Assembly: GCA_026874595.1 (NCBI GenBank)
Contig: CM049317.1
Location: 23,357,401 to 23,421,400, forward strand
DNA length: 64,000 bases
Reading direction: 5' to 3'
Source of the DNA: Sipunculus nudus
Lineage: Eukaryota; Annelida; Sipuncula; Golfingiida; Sipunculidae
The position numbers and the translations under genes were made by a program. The notes below the pieces were generated by a model. That model had not been told where the DNA came from. It saw only the letters and a list, made by a program, of their open reading frames with translations, and ran no database searches. This document shows, in pieces, positions 11,692-49,018 of the stretch. Each line of letters opens with the position of its first letter. The stretch's first letter is position 1.

Positions 11692-13007
11692 TCAATGGTC
11701 CTCTTCCTCCAGGCCGTCTGTCTCCTGTATGATGATTAAAGGATGAGGCAGCGCCTTTCTGGTATCACTCTCGTCTACCTGTACATGTGTCCTGATGTAC
11801 TCCTTGTCCTTACTAAAACCGACTTCCATGATCCAGCTGTACCACTCAGCAGGGAGTCTGTAACCTGAGGGGTAGAGCGGCGTCAGCTCTGTCTCAGCGG
11901 GCGGCAGGGGAACACGGAACTCAGTCACGTGATTCCTGCTCGCGTCGTCTGCAGCGTCACTGAAATGTCTACTCATTATGACGTCACACATAGACCCGTG
12001 TCTGGTCACGTGCAGCCGTCTGGTGGTGTTTAATGATACTAGTATCGTCTCCCAGTTTTTGACTGACCCCTGGCCCTTTGTGTTGGTAAAGTTCAGCATG
12101 TCGCTCGATGTCATACAAGTGATCTAATGATGGTTGTCTTGATCTGTGAGTAACTGTTGTAACGGTATCATTGGATAAGATGTAATATATTTAATGCTAA
12201 AATTACATATGGTTGGATGATCTATTAGGTCTGACACACTTTCGTTTTTATGACCATAGTATTCATACATTACTTGTACATCTATAACACCGTAGCGCGC
12301 CACCACCCACAAGAACAAGCCAATGAGGTCCGTGTTCCTGAGTAACCCTCCATACGGCTTGGTGATTACCACAATACGTTGTACAGGTGACTCCGCCAGG
12401 CGGCGCTCCAGGTAACACTTCAGACAAGACAGGAGATGTTGGGCACCAAAACCTGCTCTGACGAACTCCCACATAAAATATGAGACCACTTTACTCTTCA
12501 GGTCTATCAGGGTTACACGACACAATGGCAAATTGTGTCTAAAGTAAAGGTGTCTATCTGTTATATCTACATCCATGTAGACATAGAGTACCCCCTGCTC
12601 CTCCTGAGTCGTCATGACTCTATCACAATATCTGTTCACTCTGTCCGCGTCCACCTGGTGCTGCTTCAGCTGCTGCTCACTACTCTCTCCTGCTGCGCTG
12701 TTCTCCAGCAAATCACATATTCTACACACACCATACCAGTACAGGCGTTCATCGTCGTCACCCAACACCCTGATGTTGACAGATTCCATCACTTCCTTAA
12801 ATAATTCTTCATCAACTGAACATTTCATTTCTCGTTCACATGTTTTATTATATACATACAAACTGAATTGGAGATTAATTTCAGGAAGATATGTCCATTC
12901 CATTTTACAGTAATTTCCATTAACTGCCGTGAATTTCATCTTGTCAGACAGGAACCGTTTGATGTGATTCTTCAGTGCTGTCTGCACTACTGACAAACAA
13001 TCCGTAT
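11692..13007 (-). pseudogene. Transposase-derived gene copy A, exon 2 (DDE-like core) with one in-frame stop
   Basis: This exon matches the intact exon at 37372-38687 codon for codon, except that a TTG codon has become TAG at 12124-12126, just after QDNHH. The downstream 140 codons remain open and conserved (MTSSDMLNF to GLEEEDH). Visible marks are CRICDLLEN, VLYVYMDVD, FMWEFVRAGFG, SCLKCYLERR, GGLLRN and GHKNESVSDLIDHP. This order resembles the core of metazoan transposase-like proteins that carry a D-L-Q-Q box, a SCL box, an SDNCxGQN box and a GH-x5-D box. The SDNC box is replaced by TKPY. The acceptor (TTCTTGTAG, plus strand 13008-13016) is in phase with the donor at 16187. Translation would end about 145 residues early, or this is a recent pseudogene. 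Upstream open frame to 13314 through (TA)n is likely intron. Confidence 0.6.
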
Positions 13008-13055
13008 CTACAAGAAAACCATAACCTGTCGCTGTATACAAATGATTATCTCGAA

Positions 13056-13118
13056 TATATATATATATATATTGCACAATATTTGATACGTAATTTGTTA
13101 TAAACAGACATCCACTCC

Positions 13119-13185
<67 letters not shown>

Positions 13186-13186
13186 C
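13056..13186. repeat. Two (TA)n arrays just upstream of exon 2, copy A
   Basis: TA repeats at about 13056-13071 and 13122-13186 keep an Ile-Tyr open frame fused to the exon. In copy B the arrays differ in length and the frame is broken, which supports an intronic position. Confidence 0.8.
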
Positions 13187-13392
13187 ACATTAAGGTTGGA
13201 GGGTATATTTACACCGCCGTCTCTTTGACCGTTTAACGCCATGTGTCTGTTTCTCTGAGGATAATATGATTTGGTTAATGATGGACTTGAATAAATAAGT
13301 ATAGCTATAAGCATATAAAAACAACTTTCGGTTCGTTCCGTGTTGTTTAGCCTATACCTGAAATAAATATCATATGTATATATTTAAATACT

Positions 13393-13397
<5 letters not shown>

Positions 13398-13430
<33 letters not shown>
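13398..13430. repeat. (TA)n microsatellite in the predicted intron
   Basis: TA array about 30 bp 5' (on the minus strand) of a possible acceptor ATTTATTTCAG at about 13355-13365. Copy B has a longer array at 39083-39160. Confidence 0.8.
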
Positions 13431-13432
<2 letters not shown>

Positions 13433-13827
13433 TATGAAAAAAATAGAACACTTCCCTGAAAATTTAAGAGTTTAAAAATAAAAAAGACAACGAAAAACAC
13501 ATATCTATATGAAAAATTTAAAATATCAATGACACCTCATATATCTGTATAACAGATATATTGAATTAGAATTTTATTTTGAAGAAATTAAAAACCCAAG
13601 TACTCATGGATATAGAAATTAAGCAGTGGTCCGCATCCCCCCTCCATCGTGCTCACGCAAAGCATGGATTTTTTTATTATAAATTCCACAAAATTACGTA
13701 TATAAGAAGCAAAAACGAAGTACACGAGCCGGTTTTGGACCAAACGTTCGAAATCTTCCTGGGACGCTAAAAATCCTCAGACCCCGACCAAACCGACAAA
13801 CGAAACGCTCAAACAGGCGCCTTTAAC

Positions 13828-13845
13828 AGCCGTCGTCAGACGGCT
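13828..13845. repeat. Perfect short hairpin, copy A
   Basis: AGCCGTC-GTCA-GACGGCT can fold into a 7-bp stem with a 4-nt loop. It lies in a locally GC-rich ~150 bp patch of the predicted intron and is unchanged at 39558-39575. Confidence 0.6.
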
Positions 13846-14869
13846 GATACCTTAACCCCCTGCCACCCCTCCGCTCGCTCCAAATCCTGGACACGATATT
13901 ATATCTTCTCATTTTAGGTACTCTTCCTCTTATATTGTTGTCGTAATGAAAAATCACAAACATTGCATGAATGCCGTGTAGTTCTTAGAGTACAGGACAG
14001 ATGTCGCTCACGGTTGACCTGTTACCTGATTTTGTAAATAATACGAGTTTACTTTCGTGTTACAAACACTAAATCACTTGTACAACCTGTTGTAAACATT
14101 GAGTCGCGCGATAAGTACCAGACGGGGATACTCCTAATTTCTGCATTGTATACTTTAAGTCGACACCTGGGTTTTTAGTAAGTTGTTCTGTATATATGAT
14201 GGTAAAGGTACCCGGGGGGGGGGGGGGTTAACCCAATTATTATATACCTGACGGCATATTAAAATTACCAATATATTAGTTGCATGAATCGGTCGTAAAA
14301 TCATCAACAGTTAATGAAAGATAAAAAAATCTGATGATCCATTATAAGTCCATTATTTTATGTACCATCCATATAACAGTGGAATCTGAATATAGACTTA
14401 CGCCTAAAATATTCACCTTGTAAATTTAGTCTATCTTGTACGTCTCGCTCAAAGGTAATGGTGATCTTTTACTTATTTGTTGCACAAGAATTAATTTAAA
14501 TGCTATTCAGTGTTTAACGGCTCGGTCTTTCTTATCTCATATTTTAACGGAATATTGTAGTTTTTTTATTGGATGTCCATACGTCATGGTGTGTGATCGA
14601 TTATGCAAAAACGCCATCGATGTCGTGGTCCATCGGACAATTTGTCCATGGACCGAATCGACATGGGATTGATTTACTTGATTAGGTTCTAAGAGATGGG
14701 TACTGTGTAACCTTTGGCGCAATTCTTGTAACCTAGAATGAGTTTGTTTTCGAACTGCAAGATCAGTTATATTTCCCCTATTCCAACATTTGAAAATAAA
14801 ATATGCACTACTTCAAATGTTATGGTGTTAACAGAGATAATTTATTTTATGCACAGTTCAAGTTCAAAG

Positions 14870-16187: not shown

Positions 16188-17847
16188 CGTCTACTTCCTG
16201 TTGGCTTCTATTTACTGCTTTGTCGATGGCGTCACTGCAGGTTTGACCGTCTCCTGCCCGTTGGCTTTCCTTTGTTACTTTGCTGATGGTGTCTCTGCAG
16301 GTTTTGAAGTATTTCTCGAAGGTTTCTCTACACACTCTGCGGTGTTTGCCATCTTGATAAGGCAAAGAGTACTCATTACTAATCTTTCTCTTTCCTTTAC
16401 CTTTTGAAAGAGGAAGAGCACTTTTAATGTGTTCTCGGATCGTCTGTTCTTTCCTCATCTGAGACATACCACGAATGTCTTTATAAACACTTATATCAAC
16501 CTCATCTAAAGAGTCACAATACTGACAGCGTGTCCTAGGTTTCTTTGTCTTTTTTGCATTGTGAAGGCAACTAATCGCTTGCTCAAGCTCTTTTCCAGTT
16601 AATGGTATTCTTTCGGAAGTGCTCACTTTACCTTTACTTTTGTCCACGTTCATCGTTTCTTGTGAGGAATCTGCTGTATGACCACATGTGCCGTCAGGTA
16701 GGATCGAAGTTGCTGATGACGTAGTTGCGACAAATTCTGAACTGTCTAGGCGGGCTACATGAACGGTAGGGGTGAAACCAACAGATGACAAGGGGTTTAT
16801 CTCAGGAGTTCGGTAACTATTGTCGCCCTGTACGGCTGAAGCAAGGGCCAATAGTGACGCAGCAACTGTCTGTTGTTCACTCGATGTCTGTTTGATCGAT
16901 ACACCGCTGTCGTAGTCGGTGGTTGAGGTGGACATTACATTCGTCCCTGAAAACACGTCTGCCAAATGAACATTATTCAGATTATTTGAACATGACGTGA
17001 TGGAAGTATGTGTTTCGGGATACGCCGTATTTTCTTGCAATGCCACATTCACCGTTTGAAGAGATGAGCTGAGCTGTTGACCTAATGATAGTATCTTCGA
17101 AGTCACAGGTACACCTGTTTCCTCATGTGGAACCTTGGGTCCTATTGTGCTATTTATAGAAAATCCTGCATTTTGCCAATTTGTAACTGACGTGTCATTC
17201 GCAAGGAAAGAAACGGTATGTTGTTGTACATTAACCGGAGACTTTGCAGAGAAGCACTCTGATATCTCTGTTTTTGCTTTTAGAGGAGCACTTGTGACCA
17301 ATAATGTCTGTTCTGTGTTATCTGAAACAGAACTAGAAGTAGTTGAATGTTTGTTTTTCTCTGGGACAGTGTCTGGTGCAGTTTGGTTCTGCAACCCATA
17401 TCCTGTGTTTGATTCCGTTGTACTTTCATCAAAATGGCCATGAGCCGAGTTTTTACTTTCGAGGTTTAGTGTTTGATAGTGTGCCAAATTAGTGTTTAAG
17501 TTTGCTGTCAATCGTAGAAAGAACTCATGGACTTCATCTGTCTCAAGAGTGCCAGGGATCCACGAAAATGTTTCCGGATTCGCTTTCCTCAATTCCAATA
17601 TATTCATTTGAAAGCACAAAGCTAGGTCTTCTGCATGGTCATCGCTTCCCCATAAATCTGGGTGCAGAAATTGAGAGAGCTCCTGCAGGAGTGATGGTAG
17701 GTGTCTGGTCCCGCGGTAAATATTTGTTTTCTGTCTCAAATTTTTGTTGCCTGATTGTTTCGCTACTTGTCTTATAATTTGCAAAAACACTGTCTTTACA
17801 ATCCCAATATCATCTTTTGGAATGTCATATCCAGCAGGTTCAGCCAT
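16188..17847 (-). CDS. Transposase-derived gene copy A, exon 1 (N-terminal domain, Ser/Thr linker, Cys/basic region)
   Basis: The open frame from ATG 17847 gives 553 codons plus one base before a donor (GACG|GTAAAT). Read through, it would stop 11 codons later. Residues 1-115 form a conserved domain (GYDIPKDDIGIVK; YRGTRHLPSLL; FSWIP). Residues 120-430 are a Ser/Thr/Gln/Asn-rich low-complexity linker. Residues 440-520 hold a CxxC (RCQYC), IRGMSQMRKEQTI, a KGKGKRK basic patch and YSLPYQDGK-x3-VCRETF. That last pattern is like the Y-x-LP-x4-G-x3-VC-x3-F box found N-terminal to the core in metazoan transposase-like proteins. Two ~26-residue repeats (TCRDTISK.../TCSDAIDK...) end the exon. Phase matches exon 2 at 13007. 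It may alternatively be a separate single-exon gene. Start choice: MAEPAGYDIP aligns with MNMAGYEIP of copy B. Confidence 0.65.
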
Positions 17848-22201: not shown

Positions 22202-22654
22202 TTACATGTCCTGCACAGCATCGTAATGTCCACCGCCCGATTCCATGTACACCAAATGTACAATTCCCATGGTTACCTGGCCATCCATGTGAACGTCCAA
22301 GGTTGTTACGTCACTTCCTCCGCCTCCCAGAGTCACCAGAATGGTGACGTTATACAGTATGCTGAGTGCCACCAAACATTCGTTTCCGGCGTACGTTCCC
22401 GGCTGTGTCAGTACTGACAGATACTGATCCAGACTGTGACCAGGTATATACTGCTGAAACAGCAGCTGATTGTTTCTTATCATCTCGACAGCCTCCTGCC
22501 TCAGTTTCAAATGGTTCCCTTGGTGACCAAATAGACCAATGGAGACAGATCTGAAGAGACAGTTCCCGTCTCCCGGTATCGGCTGTCTACACCTCCCATA
22601 CCTAGCCAGGTACTCATCCTGATCTGTAAATTGTTTACTGAAGGGGATGTCCAT
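22202..22654 (-). CDS. OTU-domain cysteine protease (deubiquitinase-like), copy A
   Basis: A 150-residue protein that is essentially one OTU domain. The catalytic box GDGNCLFRSVS places the nucleophile at Cys32, with Asp29 beside it. The C-terminal GGGHYDAVQDM places the catalytic His at 143. OTU proteases cleave ubiquitin or related conjugates; the substrate cannot be told from sequence. No ubiquitin-binding extension is present. The coding part is one exon. A 5' UTR intron is supported by an acceptor (TTGTTCCAG, exon starting 22670) and a donor (GAG|GTAGGT, plus 23105-23110), both conserved in copy D. A minus-strand TATA-like box lies at about 23187-23195. Copy D at 48566-49018 is its intact paralogue; two decayed copies lie between. 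There is no signal peptide or membrane segment. Confidence 0.88.
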   Translation of the reverse strand: MDIPFSKQFTDQDEYLARYGRCRQPIPGDGNCLFRSVSIGLFGHQGNHLKLRQEAVEMIRNNQLLFQQYIPGHSLDQYLSVLTQPGTYAGNECLVALSILYNVTILVTLGGGGSDVTTLDVHMDGQVTMGIVHLVYMESGGGHYDAVQDM

Positions 22655-23186
22655 TCTTTACACAGATTATCTGGAACAAATAAAGTAAAGCTGTCAAGAT
22701 GTCCAATGTGTCTTAATGTCTGTTTGTTAGCTGTATCGTTCAATTAAACTAGCGGTATACCCAAAATTTCGACAAAATTACGCATAAATAACCAATGAAC
22801 GGTTTCTAGAAACTAGGTGAATTAAATTTGTCAGGGTTCGATAGAGGGGATACGAAAGTACCCCGGGGACACCTTCCAGGCGAGAGCAACGTTAAGAACG
22901 GAATAATGTCTTTTTTTTGACCACGCCGAAAGCTATACCATAAATTCTAGTTTCACATACATTGGGACGCACTGATGAAACTTTTCCTCCTAAAGTAATC
23001 ATATCAAAGTTTCTTTGATAAATTATCACCCATGTTTCTAAACTACCATGCAGTACTCCTTTCGAGTTAAACAATTTGAATATATGCATGGGAAAATAAA
23101 ATGTACCTACCTCAACAGGAGAGAGAGAGAGATCACACTAGGTAGCCAAGCCGTCAATAAATGAAGCCTGGTTTATTCCGATTCAG

Positions 23187-23196
23187 TTTATATACA
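23187..23196 (-). promoter_or_regulatory. TATA-like box of OTU-A
   Basis: The minus strand reads TGTATATAAAC about 80 bp upstream of the predicted 5' UTR donor. The equivalent place in copy D has a TATA box, so this is probably the core promoter. Confidence 0.45.
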
Positions 23197-34008: not shown

Positions 34009-34107
34009 CCCTCCCTATCACCTCAAGCCCCTATTCTAAATTCCTGTTTCCGCCACTGGTTGTAATAAATTTGAAATTTTGCACACAGACACGCATTTGC
34101 TCTTTAC

Positions 34108-34109
<2 letters not shown>

Positions 34110-34152
<43 letters not shown>

Positions 34153-34178
34153 TTATTTATTTATTTATTTATTTATTC
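34110..34178. repeat. (TA)n followed by (TTTA)n
   Basis: Counterpart of 8739-8790 with a longer TTTA part. Confidence 0.85.
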
Positions 34179-36087
34179 TTTGGCGCCATTGCTGTTTGCT
34201 TCTGTTCTTGCGCTCGCATGGTGCTGTGCGTAGCCGTCACACCAACCCGGGACTAATGCCCGTGACGCCTCTGTGCTAAAGTAAATTTGGGCACTAGAGT
34301 AGCTGATTGTCCATGCGTCTATCTTCTGTTTATAACAATTAGCTCCGAGTGGGAATATATTGTTAGTTGAATTAAAAAAAAAGTTGGACTACCGTAACCT
34401 GACCACTTTATTAGCCTGCCTGAAACAATACTTTACTATTCCAAATAGTTTCAGATACAACAGGCTTGAAATCAGAGTTTCAATGGGTCGAGCTAAGCGG
34501 CTTTGTGACTTAAAATATATTATTCCTCAATCAGTATGATGTTTGAAAACGCATAATTTAAGTTTATATTGCTATTATTCAGTTGGTGAAGCAGATGACC
34601 TGCCAATGTACGAATCTGCCAATCGTTAAGCTGTAGATCACAGATACATATCTTCGTATAAACGGCTATCTGTGTCTGTTTTCAAATTACTGTTCCAAAT
34701 CTATGGGTGAACAATGCAGATGTCTGTCGGGGAATCTATGCCCACAAACCTATAGGGCAGTGGAATATTGAAACATTTCATCACCTTGAGTATTAGAAAA
34801 AAGTATTAAGGATGATTAGATCTTCATTAGCACATTTAATGTCATTCAACTTGATAATTCCCACCACTCTTATACATGTAAGGCGTCATATGTTCAGCTT
34901 GGACCTCACACAAGTTGTCCTATTACATAGGGTGGTCGTTAAGAGGGGTTTTATTGTACATATAGGCCTAATATTATGTAATGACATTTAATGCAGTCCA
35001 GGGAAAGTAAAATAAATAGTGTAAAGAACAGTACAGTTTATGCTTGTTGCTTATTACCTAAGGATTTTAAATATTTAATAGTACTAGCATACTAACCGTT
35101 AATGTGGAGATACAGGTCCACAGGTACACATCGACTAGATGAAGTAGTTTCTGGTAGATGGCGCTGCGATCGACGTCTCGAGAAATTATGAATAAGGAAT
35201 ATCTGAAAAATGCCCTCTTAAGACACACTTAGGCATCGATCCCCGACACTTCAAGACCGTAAACGGTTTGGTCTTCCAGCAATGTTTTCCTCCATTGATG
35301 ACAGTGTAGATGTCGTATTTGTTTCCGTCCGTTCATGTTTTTTTTTACTACTTTTACCAGAGATCTTTGTTTACAAATGTATTGCACTGAAAAATCTAAA
35401 TCATCGTTATTTTAAGACACATTTCTATTAGTGCTGAATTTATTTCACCACAAATTTAAGTAAAGCACACATGTCAGTATAAAAATACGAATAATTACGC
35501 TAGTTCTACGGACAGGCAGATTCGAAATCATGTTTCAACTTGTGTCACACCAGCATACACATCCAACTGTCTATTACAAAAGTCATTTTGAAATAAGGAT
35601 GCGGTCAATCCAAACACCTTTTTTTATTAACAAATTGATCAAAATTAGGAATTACAAACATACAAATCACAAAATTAACACTTTCGTGTTGCGCTTCAGA
35701 GCTTTATTAAATAAGCACATAAGTAGGACTGACAGGGGCGGATCCGTAAGGGGGACTTTTGGCCTGACGATCCCAGCTTAAACCACATTTATCATTTATC
35801 AGAGAAATATTGATTTCTAAACATATGCATTTTATATTCATGATGACTGTGTACCAGTAAAATTAAAGCCAACGTTGATTTTTATAAGATCTGCTCCCTT
35901 TTGGCTAATAAAACAATATAAAAAAATTAAGAGGACGGCGGCGGAACCCTTACGTCAAATGATCCTTAAATATAACCACTTGACCCCCTCCCCCTGAAAA
36001 AAATCATGGATCCGCCTCTGTTGTAGAAACCAAGTCATGACAACAGGTAGGATGGTGCCTGTCACTTACGATCGGCCTATAAGGTGC

Positions 36088-36089
<2 letters not shown>

Positions 36090-36127
<38 letters not shown>

Positions 36128-36163
36128 AACACATATATATATATATACATATATATATATGCA
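36090..36163. repeat. (TA)n microsatellite
   Basis: Interrupted TA array; counterpart of 10435-10481. Confidence 0.85.
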
Positions 36164-37371
36164 ATGTATATTCACAAGCAAAAGAAGCTGTCTGTATGGG
36201 AAGCCAGGATTCCTGAATACTTTGTTAGGAGAAGTTCCTAGATGATCAGGTTATATAACGTTAAATTGTTTTAATAGTATAGTTATATTTAATATGCCTA
36301 TATCTTCTACATACTATTTAACTGTCGTTTTTCCAGCCAGTAGAAATTGGCCATGACAACAGTCGAACTCATATATGCTAACATACAGAATAATAACCGA
36401 TTTTGAGCCTTTCATTTTTTAAGAATCATATTCCAGCCAGGATCTCACATCACAGACCGGAGGAGGGATATTCAATTTCTATATTTGTTACCGTGTCGGC
36501 CACCAGATGTCGCCGCCTTAAGGGTCGTAGAACACACCGAACAGGAATGCAGTGTGGCTCCCTTGGACGTTATCGAATAATTGCCTTCATAACAAAAGTG
36601 ATCCAATGGTTCACGATTTTCTTATATAATATAAAACTGGTATATCTTGGAAGAGGTTCATAAATCAGGTATAAGATACATATAACCAAGTTCTCTCCGC
36701 ACAGCCATTAACCTAATTGGAACTAGTTTTCTCAAAGGTGTTAATCATAAAATATTATTTTTTTTTTACTTTTGAACTTAGGTGGAAAGTGCACAGATTT
36801 TATAATAAAAGGGTTTTATATTTGTTAAACATAAAAGTATATATGAATTACCACATTTAATGTGAGCACTTATGGGCAATATTCCACAAACCAAAAAAAT
36901 AAGGGAATCTGGTACTGGATTTGCTTTTCAACAATGTTTGAAATATATATTGTTTATACTGACATACACAATCCATGTTTATATCCATGGTTTACATTGA
37001 CATACATTTTCAGTATCAAATATTTCATCATTTTGATGGGAAATTGTTTTCAGTTGGTGCACTATTTACATGTTTAAATATTTTTTTGTATCTTTATTCT
37101 ATATGTCTTGTTTTAATGCAAGACATGTTGGTCAATATATGGCTATAATATATATAAAGCAAATAAGGGTACCCTGCTCAAGATTTGATATTTAATAATG
37201 TTTGAAATATATATATTTATTCCGAAATCCATATTCTACATTTATTTCCATTATTTTGGCATATAGCTATACCTATTCAGTTGCAAAATAACCCATTATT
37301 TTTATATGAAAAATGCTTTCCGTTCGTGCACGAACAAATTACATATTAAAACCCTTTAATTATTTCTATTT

Positions 37372-38687
37372 TCAATGGTCCTCTTCCTCCAGGCCGTCTG
37401 TCTCCTGTATGATGATTCTAGGAATAGGCAGCACCTTTCTGGTGTCACTCTCGTCTACCTGTACATGTGTCCTGATGTAGTCCTTCACAATACTCCAGCC
37501 GTCCTCCATGAGCCACCTGTACAACTCAGAAGGGAGTCTGTAACCTGAGGGGTAGAGCGGCGTCAGCACTGTCTCAGCGGACGGCAGGGGAACACGGAAC
37601 TCAGTCACGTGACTCCTGCCCCCGTTGTCTGCAGCGTCACTGAAACGTCTAGTCATTATGACGTCACACATTGACTCGTGTCTGGTCACGTGCAGGCATC
37701 TGGTGGTGTTTAATGATACTTGCGTCGTCTCCCAGTATGTAGCTGACACCCGGCCCTTTGTGTTGATAAAGTTCAGCATGTCGCTCGATGTCATACAAGT
37801 GATCAAATGATGGTTGTCTTGATCTATGAGTAACTGTTGTAACGGTATAATTGAATAAAATGTAATATATTTAAAGCTAATATAACGTATGGCTGGATGA
37901 TCTATCAGGTCTGACACACTTTTGTTTTTATGACCATAGTATTCATACACTACTTGTACATCTGTAACACCGTAGCGCGCCATCACCCACAAGAACAAGC
38001 CGATGAGGTCCGTGTTCCTGAGTAACCCTCCATACGGCTTGGTGATTAACACAATACGTCGTACAGGTGACTCCGCCAGGCGGCGCTCCAGGTAACACTT
38101 AAGACAGGACAGGAGATGTTGGTCACCGAAACCTGCTCTGACGAACTCCCACATAAAACGTGAGGCCACTTTACTCTTCAGGGCTATCAGGGTTACACAA
38201 CACAATGGCAAATTGTGTCTATAGTAAAGGTGTCTATCTGTTCTATCTACATCCATGTAGACATAGAGTACGCCCTGCTCCTCCTGAGTCGTCATGACTC
38301 TATCACAGTATCTGTTCATTCTGTCCGCGTCCTCCTTGTGCTGCTTCAGCTGCTGCTCACTGCTCTCTCCTGCTGCGTTGTTCTCCAGCAAATCACATAT
38401 TCTACACTCATCATACCAGTACAGGCGTTCATCGTCGTCACCCAACACCCTGATGTTGACAGATTCCATCACTTCCTTAAATAATTCTTCATCAACTGAA
38501 CATTTCATTTCTCGTTCACATGTTTTATTATATACATACAAACTGAATTTGAGATTAATATCAGGAAGATATGTCCATTCCATTTTACAGTAATTTCCAT
38601 TAACTGCCGTGAATTTCATCTTGTCAGACAGGAACCGTTTGATGTGATTCTTCAGTGCTGTCTGCACTACTGACAAACAATCCGTAT
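37372..38687 (-). CDS. Transposase-derived gene copy B, exon 2 (DDE-like core), intact
   Basis: Open throughout: 438 codons plus two bases, ending TDGLEEEDH. Marks in order (with plus positions): CRICDLLEN; a charged EQQLKQHKEDADRMNRYCD segment; VLYVYMDVD (first acidic site, about 38250); FMWEFVRAGFG; SCLKCYLERR; TKPYGGLLRN (about 38020-38042); and GHKNKSVSDLIDHP. In related metazoan transposase-like proteins, the TKPYGG place holds an SDNCxGQN box with the second catalytic Asp. Here that Asp is missing, so strand transfer activity is unlikely. The last ~145 residues (DMLNFINTKG to EEEDH) are not recognised. The acceptor TTCTTGTAG precedes 38687 and is in phase with the donor at 41209; a second in-phase acceptor (GTATACAG) lies about 27 bp further upstream. 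Joined to exon 1 the protein would have about 1013 residues. Confidence 0.65.
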
Positions 38688-38739
38688 CTACAAGAAAACC
38701 ATAACCTGTCGCTGTATACAAATGATTATCTCGAATATA

Positions 38740-38802
38740 TATATATATATATATATTGCACAATATTTGATACGTAATTTGTTATAAACAGACATCCACT
38801 CC

Positions 38803-38874
<72 letters not shown>

Positions 38875-38875
38875 A
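38740..38875. repeat. Two (TA)n arrays upstream of exon 2, copy B
   Basis: Counterparts of 13056-13186 with different lengths; here they break the Ile-Tyr frame. This fits an intron rather than coding sequence. Confidence 0.8.
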
Positions 38876-39082
38876 CATTAAGGTTGGAGGGTATATTTAC
38901 ACCGCCGTCTCTTTGACCGTTTAACGCCATGTGTCTGTTTCTCTGAGGATAATATGATTTGGTTAATGATGGACTTGAATAAATAAGTATAGCTATAAGC
39001 ATATAAAAACAACTTTCGGTTCGTTCCGTGTTGTTTAGCCTATACCTGAAATAAATATCATATGTATATATTTAAATACTTG

Positions 39083-39095
39083 TATATATATATAT

Positions 39096-39160
<65 letters not shown>
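39083..39160. repeat. (TA)n microsatellite in the predicted intron
   Basis: Counterpart of 13398-13430, more than twice as long. Confidence 0.8.
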
Positions 39161-39162
<2 letters not shown>

Positions 39163-39557
39163 TATGAAAAAAATAGAACACTTCCCTGAAAATTTAAGAG
39201 TTTAAAAATAAAAAAGACAACGAAAAACACATATCTATATGAAAAATTGAAAATATCAATGACACTTCATATATCTGTATAACAGAAATATTGAATTAGA
39301 ATTTTATTTTGAAGAAATTAAAAACCCAAGTACTCATGGATATAGAAATTAAGCAGTGGTCCGCATCCCTCCTCCATCGTGCTCACGCAAAGCATGGATT
39401 TTTTTATTATGAATTCCACAAAATTACGTATATAAGAAGCAAAAACGAAGTACACGAGCCGGTTTTGCACCAAACGTTCGAAATCTTCCTGGGACGCTAA
39501 AAATCCTCAGACCCCGACCAAACCGACAAACGAAACGCTCAAACAGGCGCCTTTAAC

Positions 39558-39575
39558 AGCCGTCGTCAGACGGCT
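39558..39575. repeat. Perfect short hairpin, copy B
   Basis: Identical to the 13828-13845 hairpin within the highly conserved intron segment. Confidence 0.6.
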
Positions 39576-39963
39576 GATACCTTAACCCCCTGCCACCCCT
39601 CCGCTCGCTCCAAATCCTGGACACGATATTATATCTTCTCATTTTAGGTACTCTTCCTCTTATATTGTTTGCTTAATCAAAGAAAATTAATGTCTTAATG
39701 AAAAATCACAAACATTGCATGAATGCCGTGTAGTTCTTAGAGTACAGGACAGATGTCGCTCACGGTTGACCTGTTACATGATTTTGTAAATAAAACGAGT
39801 TTACTTTCGTGTTACAAACACTAAATCACTTGTACAACCTGTTGTAAACATTGAGTCGCGCGATAAGTACCAGACGGGGATACTTCTAATTTCTGCATTG
39901 TATACTTTAAGTCGACACCTGGGTTTTTAGTAAGTTGTTCTGTATATATGATGGTAAAGGTAC

Positions 39964-39965
39964 CC

Positions 39966-39992
<27 letters not shown>
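39964..39992 (+). repeat. Poly-G tract
   Basis: Nearly 30 consecutive G bases; the counterpart in copy A (14212-14227) is about half as long. Confidence 0.85.
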
Positions 39993-39996
<4 letters not shown>

Positions 39997-41209
39997 CCCA
40001 ATTATTATATACCTGACGGCATATTAAAATTACCAATATATTAGTGGTATGAATCGGTCGTAAAATCATCAACAATTAATGAAAGATAAAAAAATCTGAT
40101 GATCCATTATAAATCCATTATTTTATGTACCATCCATATAACAGTGGAATCTGAATATAGAATTATGCCTAAATATTAACCTTGTAAATTTAGTCCATCT
40201 TGTACGTCTCGCTGAAAGGTAAAGGTGATTTTTTACTTATTTGTTGCACAAGAATTAATTAAAATGCTATTCAGTGTTTAACGGCTCGTCTTTCTTATCT
40301 CATATTTTATCGGAATATTGTAGTTTTTTTTATTGGATGTCCATACGTCATGGTGTGTGATCGATTATGCAAAAATGCCATCGATTTAATCGATTTGGAA
40401 AGAACACGACCAATCATCGATTTGATCGATTTGGGAAGAACACGACCAATTATCGATTTAATTGATTAACTGGCACATTACAATATATTTTCGTTCTTGC
40501 GTTGCGACTGGGTCGTGGTACATCGGACAAGTTTTCCATGGACCGAGTCGACATGGGACGGATTTACTTGATTCGTTTCTAAAAGATGGGTACTGTGTAA
40601 CCTTTGGCGCAATTCTGGTAACCTAGAATGAGTTTGTTTTCGAACTGTAAAAGACCTGGAAATTTAGATTAATTTAATATAATCAACTGCATCATTGTCT
40701 ATCATTATCTTGCTTCATATAATCCCTAATAGTAAACAACAATTTATTTTAATTATTTATTTTTCATTTTTATGGTTGAAATGAAAAATACCCAATGGCG
40801 ACTGCATGGTGTCATTTGAAATACAATTTTGGCCATCCATGGAAGATCCATAAATGATCAGTAATTGCAAGGTAATCCCCTGTAACTCATTAACTATAAG
40901 AGTTAAAAGGTTTAACTTTACGCAATGCTTTGAAACTGGTCTGAGTTACAACTGAAATGTCAAAATTTAAAAAAAATATTGAGCGCTTCAAAAGTAATTG
41001 CGTTCAAAAACTATTATTTCGAGTAATTTGATCATGACGATAAAGATCACGCTATAGAATTTTTAATTCTGATATATCAGTTATGATAATCTGTGTAAAT
41101 CACCATTTTGATTAAGTGCGATATTTAAAACAGCATTTACTTCTATTGATTTAAGGAGTGTATCTAATTAATTGTTATATCAGAAACAAAATCGTGTAGA
41201 TGTAATTAC

Positions 41210-42935
41210 CGTCTCCTTCCTGTTGGTTTTCCTGTGTTACTGTGCTGATGACGTCCCTGCAGGTTTGACCGTCTCCTTCCTGTTGGCATTTCTTTGTTAC
41301 TTTGCTAATGGTGTTTCTGCAGGTTTTGAAGTACTTCTCGAAGGTTTCTCTGCACACTCTGCGTCGTTTGTTATTTTGATAAGGCAGGTAGTATTCATTA
41401 CTAAGCTGTCTCTTACCTTTACCCTTACGTAGAGGAGGAGAACTTTTAATATATGTTCGGATCGTCTGTTCCTTCCTCACCTGTGACATTCCTCGAATGT
41501 CCTTATATAGACCTATATCAGCCTCATCCAGGTAGTCACAATACTGACAGCGTGTCTTCTGTTTCTTAGTTGTCCTTGATTTTGATAAGCAACTGATATC
41601 TTGTTTGAGCTGTTCTCCAGTTAATGGCATGAATTCTGGAGCAGATATGTCCCGTTCATCAGTGTTAAAGCTCGCAGCTTCTTGTGAGGAGTCGGCAATA
41701 TCGCCACTTGTACCATCGTACAGGATCTCGGCTGTTGGTGGAGTGTTATAGTCATTGATCAGAGCGAATTGGTTTTCTGAAGCATCTGGGGTGACCCCAG
41801 TAACCGTAGAAGTCCGACCAACCGTTGTCGAGTTGTTTATCTCATCTGTTTGGTAACTACTGTCGACTTGTGTCGCCGAAGCAAGTGATAACAACGCAGC
41901 AACTGACTGTTGTTCACTCAGGCTCTGCGTCAGCGTTCCATCACTCGTGGACTCTCTAGCTGAGGTACACGTTAAACTCGTACCTGAATAAACCTGGGGC
42001 AACTGAGCAGAGAGAGTATCCGAATGTGATGCCATCGCTCTGTTGGTTTCGGAATATGTCATATTTTCTGCCAATGACCCATTCTCTTTTTGAGCAGATA
42101 AACTGGTGTTTTGTTCCAATGATGTTATCTGAGAAGATACCTGATCAGCTGTTTCTTGCTGCGGAAGACTGGGTCTTTTGGTGGTATTTGGAGAATTCCC
42201 TGTCATTGGTAAATTTGTGAATGATTCGCCAGTCAGCAGTACCACATTGTAATTTGGCAGCACATTTTCCGTGGTTGTTGCACAGAGATTCTGGGCTACG
42301 CCCATCTGTCTTACTGGTGGAATGCTCGTGATCATCAATGACTGGGCAACACTGTCTGAAACATTGGCCGCCTGAATTGAACTCGAAGTTGTAATACGTG
42401 TCAAAGTCTGTGACTGATTTGTGTTATCTCTTGCAGTATGGGATGTTGTCGTACACAATGGTGTATTTATTTCTGTAGCATTTATATTACTGACGTGTTG
42501 GTTAGGGTTTAACTGGTCATCCCCAGCGTTGTAACCATGTTGGTTGAGTTCTGGAATACTACAAGCTGATACTTTTGCGCCATAAGCATGTAATTTTGCT
42601 CCCAATGCAAAAAAGAATGCATAGATCTCATCCGTCTCAAGGTTCACAGGGATCCACGAAAATGTTCCTGGGTTTTCTTTCCTCAATTCCAGTATTTTTC
42701 CTTGTAGAAACAAAGCTAAGTCTTCATGTTCCTTACTGTTCAATATATCTTGGTTCAGTAACTTACATAGGTCTTGCAAAATTGATGGTAGGTGTTTGGT
42801 TCCACGATAAACATTTATGTTTTCTTTTAGAATTTTGCCTGCAGGTTGTTTTTCTGCTTCTCGTATAACTTGCAGCATTCTCACCTTTACGATTCCAATA
42901 TCGTCGTCTGGAATTTCATACCCTGCCATATTCAA
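41210..42935 (-). CDS. Transposase-derived gene copy B, exon 1
   Basis: 575 codons plus one base before the donor GACG|GTAATT, the same phase as copy A. The architecture matches copy A. There is an N-terminal domain (GYEIPDDDIGIVK; YRGTKHLPSIL; FSWIP) and a long Ser/Thr/Asn/Gln linker. A C-terminal CxxC region follows (RCQYCDYLDE; IRGMSQVRKEQTI; KGKGKRQ; YYLPYQNNK-x4-VCRETF), then two short repeats each ending in a GDG. The N-terminal domain shares roughly 60% of residues with copy A, the linker is barely alignable, and the Cys/basic region is strongly conserved. The start is either Met1 or Met3 (MNMAGYEIP). Upstream sequence is unrelated to that of copy A, so the two copies probably have different promoters. 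It could be a separate gene if the predicted splice is wrong. Confidence 0.65.
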
Positions 42936-43254
42936 TCAAATGAAATTTCGTCATGTAAAATAACCCTTCCACATATTATTTTTTTTTCTATAACATTTTG
43001 AATGAAGGCACCAATGGGCAACTCCAAAAATAAACAAGTGTCTTTCACATTTTCCTGTCCTTTGTTTGGTCATTTGCCTGGTTTATTTAAATCTGTAATG
43101 AAAATAAACATTATAATATTAACCATCCAGACGGTATTGTGACGGGCTATTTTTTATATAATCTAGAATTAAATATAATACAATGAATATATACAGTAAA
43201 AATACACAGTAAATATATACAGTATGCATACTCAGAAAACAGATTCGTTAAATA

Positions 43255-43690
43255 TGTAACCAATTTTATTGGTTAAGCCAATTTAGGTTGTTTTAACCAA
43301 GATATTGTTTATCTTAACCAACGCATTGTTAAAGTACTAACCAAACCAGTTAGTTGTTCTGACCAATTTTATTGGGTAACAGAATAAAAATACTGTGTGT
43401 AGTTTAACCAATATATTTGGTCAATTGATAACCAAAATACTGATTACCTTAGCACACATATATGACCAATTTGGTTGGTTGAGATGATATTGTTAGATTT
43501 AACCAACACATTGGTTATTTCAACCAAATTGTTGGTTATGTAGTAACCAACCGCATTGTCATTTTGACCAATTTGTATTGGTCGACCATTTGGTTGCATA
43601 TATTTAACCAGTTTTCTTGGTTGAGTTAAAAATTGGTTGATTTTTATCAACTAATCGGTCAAGCACTGACCAAACCGATTGGTCACAAAC
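43255..43690. repeat. Array of AACCAAT/ATTGGTT imperfect palindromes, left block
   Basis: AACCAA, GACCAA and their complements TTGGTT and TTGGTC alternate about every 10-30 bp. Many pair as ACCAAT-n(2-6)-ATTGGT units, so each can fold and each carries a CCAAT word on both strands. It begins about 320 bp upstream of exon 1 of copy B and is absent upstream of copy A. Confidence 0.85.
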
Positions 43691-43935
43691 GGCTCCAAAT
43701 CAGTTACAAGTAATGCAAACTTTACTGGCTGAAGGGCAAAACGTCTGACACGTATGCGAGCGGTCACAAGTTTGATTCCAAAATCGTGCTGGATTTGTTT
43801 CCCCCCTGAAACCCACACCAAAGCATCTCGAAACTGAAGAACGACTTATAATAAGACTTCCAATCAATCTGGAGAATAAAACAACTGAAAAGGGGACTGA
43901 AAGTAGCAGTTCACACATAAATGTGTCCACTGGTC
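43690..43935 (+). mobile_element. tRNA-like SINE inserted in the palindrome array
   Basis: Interrupts the array with unrelated sequence. A tRNA-like head is suggested by TGGCTGAAGGGC and a B-box-like CAAGTTTGATTCC at about 43767-43779. The 3' part is not matched elsewhere in the window. Confidence 0.45.
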
Positions 43936-44175
43936 TGACCAATTTATTATTGGTTCATGTGACCAATTTATTATTTGATTTAACCATTGGTTGAGAATAA
44001 CCAAATTATCTTGGTCAACCTGACCAATTTTGTTGGTTTAAATGATCAATACCTGTTATTTGATTTCAACCAAAATAAATTGATTGTTCTAAACAATAAA
44101 TTGTTTGGACATATTTAGACCAATTAAATTGGTTGGATTTAACCAATTTTTGGTTGATTCAACCAATCTGTTTTT
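43935..44175. repeat. Array of AACCAAT/ATTGGTT imperfect palindromes, right block
   Basis: Continuation of the same motif pattern after the SINE-like insertion, ending TTCAACCAATCTG. Confidence 0.85.
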
Positions 44176-44686
44176 TTAAGTCTAACATCTCGCCTAACGA
44201 CCACCTCGTGCGTCCTTAAAATTGTATGGATGTATGTGAATGTAGGGTTTTAGGTCTGTGTATGTATATAGTTAAGGTTTTTTCTTAAGACTAAATATCT
44301 GTGGGTTTTGTTGATGATTCCTTCCCGGAAAATGCAAGTAAAAAGTTGTGTTACCTTTGTATATTTCATGAGTGTATTTTTTTAACAATAATTTAACTGA
44401 ATTCGGATGAGGACTGGTATTAAAATGCTCAGCCCCACACTGTAAGGTTTGTATTCTGATACAACTGTGTCACATCGGGGTACAGCTGTTTATCATGATA
44501 TATAAATACAGCGACAAAAAAAAGACACTCAATATACCACGCAAACACTTCAAACACAGCACTGCTTTTGACCCATTTGCCGTGAGAGCTATTGGCTTAC
44601 TTGTGGGAAGTTCTACTGTATATAACCACATTATATTTACGCTTATAAGGGATTAGATTTTATTGATCAAATTCATATACAAAAAA

Positions 44687-44691
<5 letters not shown>

Positions 44692-44731
<40 letters not shown>
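44692..44731. repeat. (TA)n microsatellite
   Basis: About 20 TA units, absent from the second duplicate. Confidence 0.85.
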
Positions 44732-44735
<4 letters not shown>

Positions 44736-44826
44736 CATCATGAAGGATCCTAAGGAGGGAAAAGTTAAGAACTTGTAAATAAAATTATCGTGTCATATAT
44801 GTATGTTACATCATAACACAGTATGG

Positions 44827-44839
44827 CAAAATGGCGGCT
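44827..44839 (+). promoter_or_regulatory. YY1-like site CAAAATGGCGGCT (1)
   Basis: Matches the AAnATGGCGGC core of YY1 and is kept exactly in the second duplicate, while flanking bases differ. Confidence 0.35.
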
Positions 44840-47030
44840 GGATGCTCGACCTCTTGGTGTTAAAGGGTATTCTATCCACCAAGGCATTACGGTATTTAAA
44901 GTCTGAAAATCTTAGCTCAAGGTATATTTTGACTGTAGAAACTTAGCACCCCCTTTATGATGACGACAAAAGAGCCTTTATATTTCTTACTCATGATCAA
45001 TAACCTATGGTGCGTTTCTTTTGTCTGCTCACACTGATAATCACGCTTCCTGATAGGCTAACTTGGAACTTTGACGGAAAATCACAGGTTTAGGCAAGAA
45101 TAAATGCAAAAGGGACCAGTCTGTTAAACTGCCCTATATTGATGAACACTCTAAATATTATAACATTTGTACCCCGCAACTTACCTACCTCGCAGGGACC
45201 TACAGCAAAGACCGTCAGAACCGTGTTAAGGACATGTAAAGTATCCTTCTATTTCATGTACATTCATGATCTTTACCTCGTTTTGATATGTATATCATGG
45301 AGGACAGACTAGACGGTTAAACAACTAACGGAGAAAATAAAAATAGATAAAAAATAAAACGGATTTTCCAGATAAATATTAGCTAGTACATAATGAGTCC
45401 GTTCAAAATTACGAAAATAATACATCCTGTTTATATTATATCTGGGTGAAGGTTTCAAGGTCCGTTCAAAATCACGAAAATGCTAAGTGAATACCTGCAT
45501 GGTGAACATTAGTTAAGCCCTGATTGGCTCTGGAGGAGGTCTGTCTTACTTATAATATATCACTTCATCTTTATTTCAAATGTCCGGACCGTGTAAATAT
45601 TTGTTTTACAAAATAAAAAACTTGTGGTATACACGGGTTCTAGAGTTCAATGTCACACCCGCAAATAATGATTAGTGAGCCAATCTCACGGAGACACACA
45701 GAAGGCTAACATAATCACATTAACCCACTTGGGTGAGGGACAGCTGAACAGGAAGAAAGCACCATGTCCTCTAAAAAGACCTCGCCAGAGCAAAAACAAT
45801 CTCTCGTGATTGACTGCACTTTACACGCATGCGCCCACACACAGATAAACTTCCAAAGACACGAATATGTTTTGCCAGTGTTAAACAGGCCTATGTTATA
45901 TGATACAGATGACTCTATGTCACCAAACATGAATATTTTACTATAATATATATATTATATAACAACGAAACAAGGGCAGATGTACAAGTTATATGTGTTG
46001 GTTTATTCACTGTGAAACACTCGCATTTACGCTTTAGGTTCGGATATGAACAATTCATGGTGGAACAAAGTACTAATAGATACTATTGGCCTGTCTTATT
46101 TGTAGGTATATCACTATTGAAAACAATGGAACTTCACAAATCTATATTGATATTTCAGAATTACAGTTTAATATTATTCAAACCTGACCGAGAAAATGTA
46201 AACTTCTTGCTTCACCCGTACGCTAATTTGTTATTTGTAATATTTGTTATTGTTCTTGTACTTTTCCACAACTGATCAGTTAACTAAGTGCTAACCTTTG
46301 ACAGGAATATTATAAATTTTACCTTGAAAATACAGGTTTTCAACCCCAAAGCTTTCTAAAATGAATTTCTAAAAGGTTATTTTCATTGAATTTCATGCAT
46401 AATGAAACCAACCATCTCACTGTCACATGTTGAAATGCAAGGACTACTTGCATTTTTGACTTATATGCCTGTTGAAAAGAGTAATCACTGGAAATATCCA
46501 TTCTTAAAATGTCATGTTTATTTTGCGCTGAAGTATACAATGTTCTGTCAATCAGTTTCTTCCACTGTATGTATATATGTATTTATTGAATTTCTTAAGA
46601 TTAAATTTCTGTGGGTTTCCAATAAAATGCACATCATAGACTCATACTGTTTGTATACAGTCCACTATAGCACGTAACAGCTTGCTAGCTGCGTATCCTG
46701 ATATACAAATACAGAAACTAAAAAAAAGACGCACAGCGTACCACAGAAACACACTGATAACATCGTACGGCCTTTGACCCATTTATGGAGAGCTATTGGC
46801 TTACACGGGGGATATTTCGCCGTGTAATGAACACAGCATTTACGCATACAAGGGATACGATTTTTATTGGAAAAATTCATTTTTTTTGCTAACCAGGAGG
46901 GTCAATAGTCTGAAATATACACAAATTCCAGCTTTATGAATGGATCAAGTGGACGATCAGTGTAAGTAAATAACATATGCATGACCTACATGTATGTGTA
47001 AGACGTATGGTACTTCAATGCACAGTGTGG

Positions 47031-47043
47031 CAAAATGGCGGCT
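47031..47043 (+). promoter_or_regulatory. YY1-like site CAAAATGGCGGCT (2)
   Basis: Exact repeat of the 13-mer at 44827-44839. Confidence 0.35.
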
Positions 47044-47602
47044 TACTGTCCGTCTGCGTTAAATGATTTGTCAATCTATCTCAGAATTATTATTTGAAGT
47101 CTTACTGTAGGTAATATTTAGAATGGAGGGTCTGACCAGCCTCTGCCTTATAACAGCATTTGTAAACTCATTGACGTCTCTCAATAATGAAATGGCGTTT
47201 CCCATGTCCGTCCTTTTACATATATCATAATATAAAGTCTAGGCCAACTTGATATGCTGACGTTTGGTTATAAGAAATAATTTAACAACATAATCTGAAA
47301 ACGAGGAAAGAGACCGGTCTGTTAAATAAACTGACCAGTCATACATCAAAGGACGGCCGACATATTTTGCCCAATGTTTATGAATACTTTGATTATTATA
47401 ACTGCGTACCTCGCATGGATACCAGATCCCGGGGACATGCAGCACAGACCATCCTAACCGTGTCAGTGGCATGCAACGTAACCTACTAGTTCATTAATAT
47501 TCATGAGGTGCCTCGTTTTGATCTGAGGTATATCATAAAGGACAGACTGAAGGCTAGCATTGTTGTCAGTATTATAACCACTAATGTAGTCTAAATATAA
47601 AA

Positions 47603-47612
47603 GGGACTTTCC
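47603..47612. promoter_or_regulatory. Canonical NF-kB-type decamer GGGACTTTCC (3)
   Basis: Directly follows a TATA-like AAATATAAAA and lies in the same CCTCGTTTT...GGACAGACTGAAGGCTA context as the sites at 18491 and 19068. The matching place in the first duplicate (about 45361-45370) reads GGATTTTCC. Confidence 0.4.
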
Positions 47613-48526
47613 AGAGAAACATTGTCAAGAGAAACATTGGACAGGAAAGACCCATCGTGTCCTCCCAAAAAAACTTCTCTTGTGTGGGACTGCACTTTAA
47701 ACGCATGCGCACACACACAAATTCACAGAGACACGAATATGTTTTAAAAGTGTTATGCAGGCCTATGTTACATGGTACAGATGTCAACAAACATGGATAA
47801 TTTTAATAAACTAAAAAACACCGGGATAAATACAAGTTAGATGTTGTGGTTTATTCACTAATAAAAACTCATACACGCTTTAAGACTCAGATATGAAATA
47901 CTCATGCTGAAACAAGGTACGCCTACTACTGTTGCAACTATATGTCTTACATGTTCATATATATCTGATGAAAACAAATGACATTTTATAAACCAATACT
48001 TATATTCAGCCCTTACAGCTTAATGTTATTCAAACTGACTGAAGAAAATGTTAACTTATTTTAACTGATTACCAGTGTTGACTAATGTTGTATGTACTTT
48101 TCAACAAGCATCATTTAGTGCTGACATTCATTTAATGAACCTTTGATAAGAAAAGTATAGGCTTTACCTTGAAGATACAGCTAGGTAATCAACCCTAAAG
48201 CTTTGGAAGACATATTTTTCAGATGATTTCTTTAAGTGTTATTTTAGTTGATCGTCCTGCATATTGAAACCATATTACTGTCACATAGGCCTATATTGAA
48301 ATGCAAACACTACTTGCATTAATAACTTATATGCCTGTTGATAATAGTAATCCCTGGAAATATCCATTCTCAAAATGTCATGTTAGTTTTGCACCGAAGT
48401 ATACAATGTTGTGTCTTCAAGTTTCTTCCTTTTCATTGTTCCGATCTATAAACCTAACATATCTTCTGCTTAGCTAATTGATAATCAATTTGTCTTATTG
48501 GGATATTCCACAATACTATAAGGTGC

Positions 48527-48532
48527 TTTATT
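48527..48532 (-). terminator. PolyA signal of OTU-D
   Basis: AATAAA on the minus strand, 34 bp downstream of the stop codon. Confidence 0.55.
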
Positions 48533-48565
48533 TCCAGTCCACACCTCATTTCTTATAACCTCAAT

Positions 48566-49018
48566 TTAAATATCTTGTACGGCATCGTAATGTCCACCAT
48601 TGGCTTCCGTGTACACCACATGTACAGTTCCCATGGTTACCTGTCCTTCCATATGCACATCCAGGGTGGTTACGTCAGAGTCTCCGCCTCCCAGAGTTAC
48701 CATAATGGTGACGTCATACAACAAGCTGAGCGCCACCAGACATTCATGGCCGGCGTACGTCCCTGGCTGTGACAACAGGGACAAATATTGATCAAGATTG
48801 GGACAAGGTATATACTGCTGGAACAGCTGCCGTTTGTTCCTCATCATGTGGACAGTTTGTTGCCTCAGATTCAGATGGTTGCCTTGGTGACCGAGCAGAC
48901 CGACAGAGAGAGCCCTGAAGAGACAGTTACCATCTCCCAGTACCGGATGTCTACATCTCCCATGCCTGGCCAGATACGCGTCCTGTTCTGATAATTCTTT
49001 ACTGAAGATGATGGCCAT
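48566..49018 (-). CDS. OTU-domain cysteine protease (deubiquitinase-like), copy D
   Basis: A 150-residue single-domain OTU protease. GDGNCLFRALS places the nucleophile Cys32; ANGGHYDAVQDI at the C-terminus places His143. It shares about two thirds of its residues with OTU-A at the same length, with no gaps. The gene model is well supported. The minus strand has CCAAT (about 49548-49552), a TATA box (49531-49540), a 5' UTR exon ending GAG|GTAAGT (donor at plus 49456-49461), an acceptor TCTGTTCCAG, and exon 2 starting at 49034 with the ATG 16 bp further on. An AATAAA follows the stop. It lies 5' of the copy-B transposase-derived gene on the same strand, as OTU-A lies 5' of copy A. The function is inferred only at family level, as cleavage of ubiquitin or ubiquitin-like conjugates. 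Confidence 0.9.
   Translation of the reverse strand: MAIIFSKELSEQDAYLARHGRCRHPVLGDGNCLFRALSVGLLGHQGNHLNLRQQTVHMMRNKRQLFQQYIPCPNLDQYLSLLSQPGTYAGHECLVALSLLYDVTIMVTLGGGDSDVTTLDVHMEGQVTMGTVHVVYTEANGGHYDAVQDI

What the first reader, a model, noticed from the sequence alone, without database searches (positions are those of the whole stretch)
11692..49018. Repeated two-gene module: OTU protease followed by a transposase-derived gene
Seen: on the minus strand an intact OTU gene (22202, 48566) lies 5' of each two-exon transposase-derived gene (ATG at 17847, 42935), and a third transposase-gene relic lies at 61160. Spacing is 4.4 and 5.6 kb. Inference: pairing may reflect a co-duplicated locus or a mobile/viral-like cargo unit. 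I know of no described system combining these two.
Basis: partly seen in the sequence, partly recalled or inferred. Interest (0 to 1): 0.75.

Follow-up and report, generated by a model that had tools for sequence, protein, structure and literature searches.

The report
Deubiquitinase paired with dead transposase gene
In one animal genome, a small ubiquitin-cutting enzyme gene and a gene descended from a jumping-gene enzyme that seems to have lost its cutting site sit near each other at each place where they were found, which suggests an old host gene pair copied as a block rather than a mobile element.

Summary
Two minus-strand modules exist: OTU 22202-22654 upstream of two-exon gene T (11692-17847), and OTU 48566-49018 upstream of T (37372-42929). 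T copy 1 has a nonsense codon, the third relic is about 31 codons, and two broken OTUs were missed. A third full module lies about 84 kb beyond the window. In genome-wide searches, this OTU subfamily (49% identity or more) and both T exons were found at the same three loci only: the window cluster, a site 5 Mb away, and one on another contig. Of 21 other transposase relatives, 20 lie over 700 kb from any OTU found. T is transposase-derived (hhalign E 6e-7; 0 of 60 shuffles reach the score), and a presumed catalytic Asp is replaced in 6 of 6 copies. Nearby modules are ordinary segmental duplications; between older loci only exons and repeats align. I found no terminal inverted repeats, viral relatives or mobile copies. 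OTU with transposase has precedents (Ginger1, Helentrons). Most likely this is a co-inherited host gene pair. Functional coupling is unproven; one locus with decayed OTUs but open T frames argues against strict dependence.

The parts
22202..22654 (-). OTU deubiquitinase gene, module 1: intact 150-aa frame with GDGNC and GGHYD motifs
22671..23194 (-). putative promoter, 5' non-coding exon and 5' intron of OTU module 1 (TATA-like near 23194, donor AGGTAGGTA near 23112, acceptor TTTGTTCCAG near 22671); inferred, no RNA data
16188..17847 (-). T gene (transposase-derived), module 1, exon 1; frame runs to 16153, inferred phase-1 donor GACG|GTAAAT
11692..13049 (-). T gene, module 1, exon 2; inferred acceptor TTCGAG|ATAATCAT; interrupted by in-frame TAG at 12124-12126
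48566..49018 (-). OTU deubiquitinase gene, module 2: intact 150-aa frame
49035..49537 (-). putative promoter, 5' non-coding exon and 5' intron of OTU module 2 (TATA-like near 49537, donor near 49463, acceptor CTGTTCCAG near 49035); inferred
41210..42929 (-). T gene, module 2, exon 1 (frame 41175-42929)
37372..38729 (-). T gene, module 2, exon 2, intact frame; TKPYGGLLRNTD stands where the transposase relative has SDGCCYQNRN
26765..27212 (-). broken OTU copy (matches in three frames), an extra copy without its own T gene
32175..32512 (-). broken, truncated OTU copy; the stretch 32175-32745 is 98% identical to 26875-27444
61250..61342 (-). relic of about 31 codons near the end of T exon 2 (flank similarity from 61136)
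9167..14621 (.). segmental duplicate of 34789-40385 (92.8%), contains T exon 2
34789..40385 (.). segmental duplicate of 9167-14621
33536..49063 (.). module 2 block, collinear in pieces with the module 3 block beyond the window (window coordinates about 144815-160212), about 85-95% identity

Best explanation
This is an old, co-inherited pair of host genes. One is a small stand-alone OTU deubiquitinase related to OTUD1/OTUD3. The other (T) is a two-exon gene derived from a DDE-type transposase whose catalytic site appears to have been replaced. SHOWN: this OTU subfamily and the T gene were found at the same three genomic loci and not elsewhere; nearby modules arose by segmental duplication of the whole block; T is homologous to a transposase-like protein of the same genome; a presumed catalytic Asp is gone in 6 of 6 T copies; the four intact OTU copies on C12 show purifying selection and keep the catalytic Cys and His. 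INFERRED: an OTU gene and a domesticated transposase gene came to lie near each other in an ancestor, and later duplications carried both, so linkage is by descent. INFERRED, and least certain: T acts as a DNA- or chromatin-binding protein (CxxC blocks, basic stretch, S/T/Q-rich linker, no nuclease), and the OTU enzyme removes ubiquitin from T or from proteins at its targets. I put about 25-30% on such coupling; the passive rival below is the other form of this same account.
For: Exon 2 search: 11 of 11 matches at C12:23.37-23.51 Mb, C12:18.53 Mb or C16:21.86-21.94 Mb. Exon 1 search: 7 of 7 at the same loci. A divergent exon 2 query from C16: 9 of 10 there, the tenth a chance-level match at E 1.77; a C16 exon 1 query: 7 of 7 there. 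OTU search: 14 of 27 rows have 49% identity or more and all 14 lie at those loci; the 13 rows elsewhere have 36% or less. Chance that two random loci both fall within 20 kb of any of 50 OTU clusters is about 2e-6. Control: of 21 other transposase relatives, 20 are over 700 kb from any OTU place found and 1 is 114 kb from a decayed one. Module 2 and 3 blocks are collinear including intron and intergenic DNA. C12:18.5 against the window cluster aligns at OTU and T exons; the other matches are repeats. Transposase homology: hhalign prob 92, E 6.3e-7, 0 of 60 shuffles reach the score. pN/pS among the four C12 OTU copies is 0.29-0.52. On C12, 4 of 4 OTUs next to a T gene are intact frames, and 0 of 3 extra OTU copies are.
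Against: No expression data. On C16 the OTU copies are degenerate (start replaced by LINE-like sequence and His lost in one; the others truncated) while two T copies keep open frames; with C16 counted, 4 of 7 OTU copies near T genes are intact. Orientation differs on C16. Module 3 OTU has GNGDC in place of GDGNC. Recent exon 2 pairs have pN/pS of 0.90-1.22, compatible with relaxed constraint, and T copy 1 has a stop. 800 bases upstream of T and of OTU share no detected sequence. Both structure models were too poor to use (mean pLDDT 38 and 34). A Pfam DUF7869 member compared with T gave no support. Three loci need only two older duplications, so retained linkage rests on few independent events.
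Confidence: 0.7

Rival explanations
1. Passive hitch-hiking only (the minimal form of the account above): the two genes were neighbours by accident in an ancestor, duplications copied the block, and nothing selects for keeping them together.
For: Plain segmental duplication explains the window cluster; few independent duplication events; C16 OTUs decayed while T frames remain open; no shared upstream sequence detected.
Against: The pair kept order and orientation at C12:18.5 although no intergenic sequence aligns any more; on C12 each of the 4 intact OTUs lies next to a T gene.
Confidence: 0.55
2. Remnant of one ancestral DNA transposon that carried both a transposase and an OTU protease (as Ginger1 and Helentrons do in their own ways) and was domesticated as a pair.
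For: Precedents: Ginger1 (PMC2836005, passages) and Helentrons (PMC4067079, passages; PMC9741609, passages), the last with domestication of transposon-borne deubiquitinases of another class; T is transposase-derived.
Against: Other members of the transposase family are not linked to OTU (1 of 21 within 114 kb); no inverted repeats flanking the pairs; gaps of 4.4-10.9 kb are large for one element; OTU is a separate gene whose two PDB sequence matches are OTUD1 and OTUD3. The OTU tree is too poorly resolved to decide.
Confidence: 0.15
3. Currently mobile or viral-like cargo unit.
For: A deubiquitinase gene and a transposase-derived gene repeat as a unit.
Against: Found at only three loci in 1.43 Gb; catalytic motif replaced in 6 of 6 T copies; no inverted repeats flanking the pairs; 0 relatives confirmed among 56 and 92 pattern matches in viral contigs.
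Confidence: 0.02

Closest known systems
Ginger1 DNA transposons (PMC2836005; passages read)
   Same: Combine a DDE-type transposase with an OTU cysteine protease; the table of families includes one from Aplysia with OTU.
   Different: There the OTU is a C-terminal domain of the same protein, in elements with terminal inverted repeats and an integrase-like core. Here two separate genes, few copies, no inverted repeats flanking the pairs, and a T gene with its catalytic motif replaced.
Helentron rolling-circle transposons with OTU (and VTD) deubiquitinases (PMC4067079, PMC9741609; passages read)
   Same: Mobile-element genes accompanied by deubiquitinase genes; VTD deubiquitinases later domesticated by hosts.
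   Different: Rep/helicase elements, not DDE transposases; mobile.
OTUD1 / OTUD3 deubiquitinases (PDB 4bop, 4bou)
   Same: The module OTU matches the catalytic domain over nearly its whole length (E 2.7e-18 and 1.4e-15); Cys and His kept in the 4 intact C12 copies.
   Different: Only a 150-aa catalytic domain, locally duplicated; the 4 intact copies each lie next to a T gene.
DDE-type transposase-like family in the same genome (C14:11711686 and others; partly the same places as Pfam DUF7869 hits)
   Same: T exon 2 aligns with the C14 member over 104 columns at 27% identity.
   Different: T lacks the SDGCCYQNRN motif (T[KR]PYGGLLRNTD instead) and the GHTQMEVDSVH motif, and was found only at three OTU-bearing loci.

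Membership tests
OTU deubiquitinase (PF02338) | OTU profile match above curated cut-off | tested here: met
   47.6 and 52.9 bits against cut-off 23.3
OTU deubiquitinase (PF02338) | catalytic Cys and His in GDGNC...GHYD context (roles recalled) | tested here: met
   Cys and His kept in copies 22k, 48k, module 3 and C12:18.5; module 3 reads GNGDC; C16 copies degenerate
OTU deubiquitinase (PF02338) | cleaves ubiquitin chains | not testable with these tools
   needs enzyme assay
DDE transposase superfamily (T gene) | sequence homology to a transposase-like protein | tested here: met
   hhalign prob 92, E 6.3e-7 for one comparison, 0 of 60 shuffles; phmmer best E 6e-10 in a set of 6. Comparison with a DUF7869 member gave none
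DDE transposase superfamily (T gene) | curated Pfam or PDB sequence match | tested here: not met
   no credible match
Active DDE transposase | acidic catalytic residues kept (assignment recalled) | tested here: not met
   SD of SDGCCYQNRN is TK (5 copies) or TR (1 copy) in 6 of 6 T copies; GHTQMEVDSVH motif lost
Ginger1 transposon | transposase core fused to OTU in one protein | tested here: not met
   OTU is a separate frame with its own stop, 4.4-10.9 kb from T
Ginger1 transposon | terminal inverted repeats | tested here: not met
   none flanking the 3 pairs in about 5 kb on each side; two 15-17 base matches flanking T alone in modules 1 and 3, not shared between modules; among 329 inverted pairs in 9000-24000 the 25 shown are AT repeats
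Helentron | Rep/helicase ORF | tested here: not met
   longest open frame of the window is 586 aa and is T exon 1; the frames given to Pfam had no helicase match; spliced genes not excluded

The most novel reading that the evidence does not exclude
A domesticated, catalytically dead transposase and a dedicated OTU deubiquitinase form a functional two-gene system kept together by selection, in which the transposase-derived protein recognises DNA or mobile elements and the deubiquitinase sets its stability or the ubiquitin state at its targets; the fast evolution of the transposase-derived partner would fit genomic conflict.
Probability: 0.22. Interest if true: 0.7.

Novelty: new variant of a known kind. 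Interest (0 to 1): 0.45.

Why it matters
Deubiquitinase domains recur in unrelated transposons, and why is not settled (PMC2836005 and PMC9741609 only speculate in the passages seen). A host locus where a deubiquitinase has stayed beside a dead transposase through several duplications gives a concrete, testable pair for asking whether transposase proteins and deubiquitinases work together. If linkage is only passive, it is an ordinary co-duplicated gene block.

Tried and rejected
Viral origin: two scans of viral contigs, no confirmed relatives. Pfam and PDB sequence searches for T: nothing credible. AlphaFold models of exon 2 and exon 1 from two-sequence alignments had mean pLDDT 38.3 and 33.7, so no fold search was made. 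A DUF7869 member (C8:49313583) compared with T gave no support (hhalign prob 0.1); the homologue that did was the C14 protein. OTU tree: 1 of 11 inner branches well supported, so it cannot decide cellular against transposon origin; two near-identical short rows (C9, C17) were dropped before it, and a first script failed at the tree step. Shared upstream sequence of OTU and T: none detected. The donor pattern seen upstream of OTU in modules 1 and 2 was not found in module 3. The bacterial promoter scan is not informative for an animal genome. Papers on a host OTU-transposase pair: none seen in the listings of searches (open-access library; of 302, 964 and 42 papers in searches only 15, 10 and 12 were listed).

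Limits: whole-genome searches score only best candidates, so counts are lower bounds and absence elsewhere is not proven. No other animal genome could be searched, so cross-species linkage is untested. For C16 only parts of the locus were read. A last OTU search with a C16 copy as query did not complete. E-values are for one comparison or a set of six, against one relative, not a library search.
Full report
WHAT IS IN THE WINDOW. On the minus strand lie two modules. Module 1: OTU 22202-22654 and T exons at 16188-17847 and 11692-13049. Module 2: OTU 48566-49018 and T exons at 41210-42929 and 37372-38729. The exon ends are my reading of splice signals: a phase-1 donor GACG|GTAA in 3 of 3 cluster copies and a phase-1 acceptor TTCGAG|AT in the same 3; there are no RNA data. 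T copy 1 has a TAG at 12124-12126. Two further OTU copies at 26765-27212 and 32175-32512 are broken, and near 61.3 kb only about 31 codons of the T end remain.

BEYOND THE WINDOW. In 264 kb around the window (2,500 bases of it N) a third complete module lies at window coordinates 148191-160168 (exon 2, exon 1, OTU in the same order and strand). There are also an inverted broken exon 2 (74.7-75.9 kb), an exon 1 relic (about 88 kb) and a broken OTU (128 kb). Module 2 and module 3 blocks are collinear in pieces at about 85-95% including non-coding sequence, and the left flank of module 1 (598-10426) matches the left flank of module 3 at 92%. So the cluster grew by segmental duplication. Parts seem to have exchanged sequence or duplicated at different times: between modules 1 and 2, exon 2 has dS 0.05, while exon 1 has 0.72 and OTU 0.64.

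GENOME-WIDE. T exon 2: 11 of 11 matches, and T exon 1: 7 of 7 matches, lie at C12:23.37-23.51 Mb, C12:18.53 Mb and C16:21.86-21.95 Mb. C16 queries find the same loci (9 of 10 matches, the tenth at E 1.77; 7 of 7). OTU: of 27 matching rows, 14 have 49% identity or more and all 14 lie at these three loci (several are pieces of one copy); the other 13 rows lie elsewhere at 36% or less. At C12:18.5 Mb, OTU lies 10.9 kb upstream of T on the same strand, as in the window. At C16 the order and strands differ, the OTU copies are degenerate, and two T copies keep open frames. The chance that two random loci both fall within 20 kb of any of 50 OTU clusters is about 2e-6; this treats the loci as independent, which duplications are not, so it shows that linkage is real, not that it is selected. 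As a control, 21 other transposase relatives (13, 8 further places) were checked against 65 OTU rows (52, 13, a few places in both): 1 of 21 is within 114 kb and 20 are more than 700 kb away.

AGE. Of 22.7 kb read at C12:18.5, OTU and T exons align with the window cluster; the remaining matches are repeats with several copies in the region, a short OTU fragment and AT-rich pieces, and nothing between OTU and exon 1 aligns. Pairing has therefore outlasted the recognisable non-coding sequence.

WHAT T IS. No credible Pfam or PDB sequence match. A transposase-like protein in a 622-aa open frame at C14:11711686 (found with a probe typed from recall) aligns with the exon 2 profile over 104 columns: hhalign prob 92, E 6.3e-7, score 52.3 against a maximum of 20.3 in 60 shuffles. 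A more distant DUF7869 member gave no support. The C14 motif SDGCCYQNRN is T[KR]PYGGLLRNTD in 6 of 6 T copies, and GHTQMEVDSVH is not kept. That these motifs hold the catalytic acids is from general knowledge of DDE transposases. The replacement motif is nearly invariant among T copies. I infer a domesticated protein without nuclease activity. Exon 1 holds an N-terminal conserved block, a long S/T/Q-rich variable part and a conserved CxxC block with basic residues.

SELECTION. pN/pS: OTU 0.29-0.52 in six pairs; exon 1 0.60-0.64 in six pairs; exon 2 0.56-0.66 in 11 old pairs and 0.90-1.22 in 4 recent pairs, whose intervals include 1. So OTU is constrained, while T is looser and may be relaxed or diversifying; these data do not separate the two.

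HOW IT WORKS. Most likely both are host genes linked by descent and copied as a block. The most likely biochemical roles are ubiquitin removal by OTU, and DNA or chromatin binding by T. A joint function is possible (about 25-30%) but nothing here shows it. Against dependence stand the C16 locus and the lack of detected shared upstream sequence; for it stand the retained order on C12 and the fact that the 4 OTUs next to a T gene there are intact while 0 of 3 extra copies are (with C16 included, 4 of 7 OTUs near T genes are intact).

COMPARISON. OTU domains are known in Ginger1 transposases (PMC2836005, passages) and in Helentrons (PMC4067079, PMC9741609, passages), so the combination as such is not new. 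Separate genes, a different and apparently dead transposase, few copies and no inverted repeats flanking the pairs set this case apart. RAG-like two-gene transposons (PMC7204232, search listing with abstract start only) are a further analogy for paired genes.

Noticed in passing
window 18309-18877 and 18886-19454: 569-base direct duplication, 100% identical and nearly adjacent: a very recent tandem duplication or an assembly artefact.
   Followed up: no
window 59609-62260: Diverged repeat family with several copies here and around 83-85 kb and 167-168 kb of window coordinates.
   Followed up: no
window 13055-13190 and 38731-38880: Long AT microsatellites lie close upstream of the inferred splice acceptor of T exon 2; they could affect splicing.
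   Followed up: no
L040 (C16:21872501-21876000): A degenerate OTU frame runs on from a stretch that looks like a LINE-type endonuclease (recognised by eye), beside a second partial OTU copy.
   Followed up: partly
C1:6493300, C4:24886656, C10:53456197, C9:65235447: OTU matches over the same span on four contigs, three with the same score and one slightly lower, in long open frames: perhaps an OTU-bearing mobile element.
   Followed up: no
C9:56526561-56903444: Four transposase relatives spaced about 124-128 kb apart, three with identical scores: perhaps a large tandem duplication.
   Followed up: no
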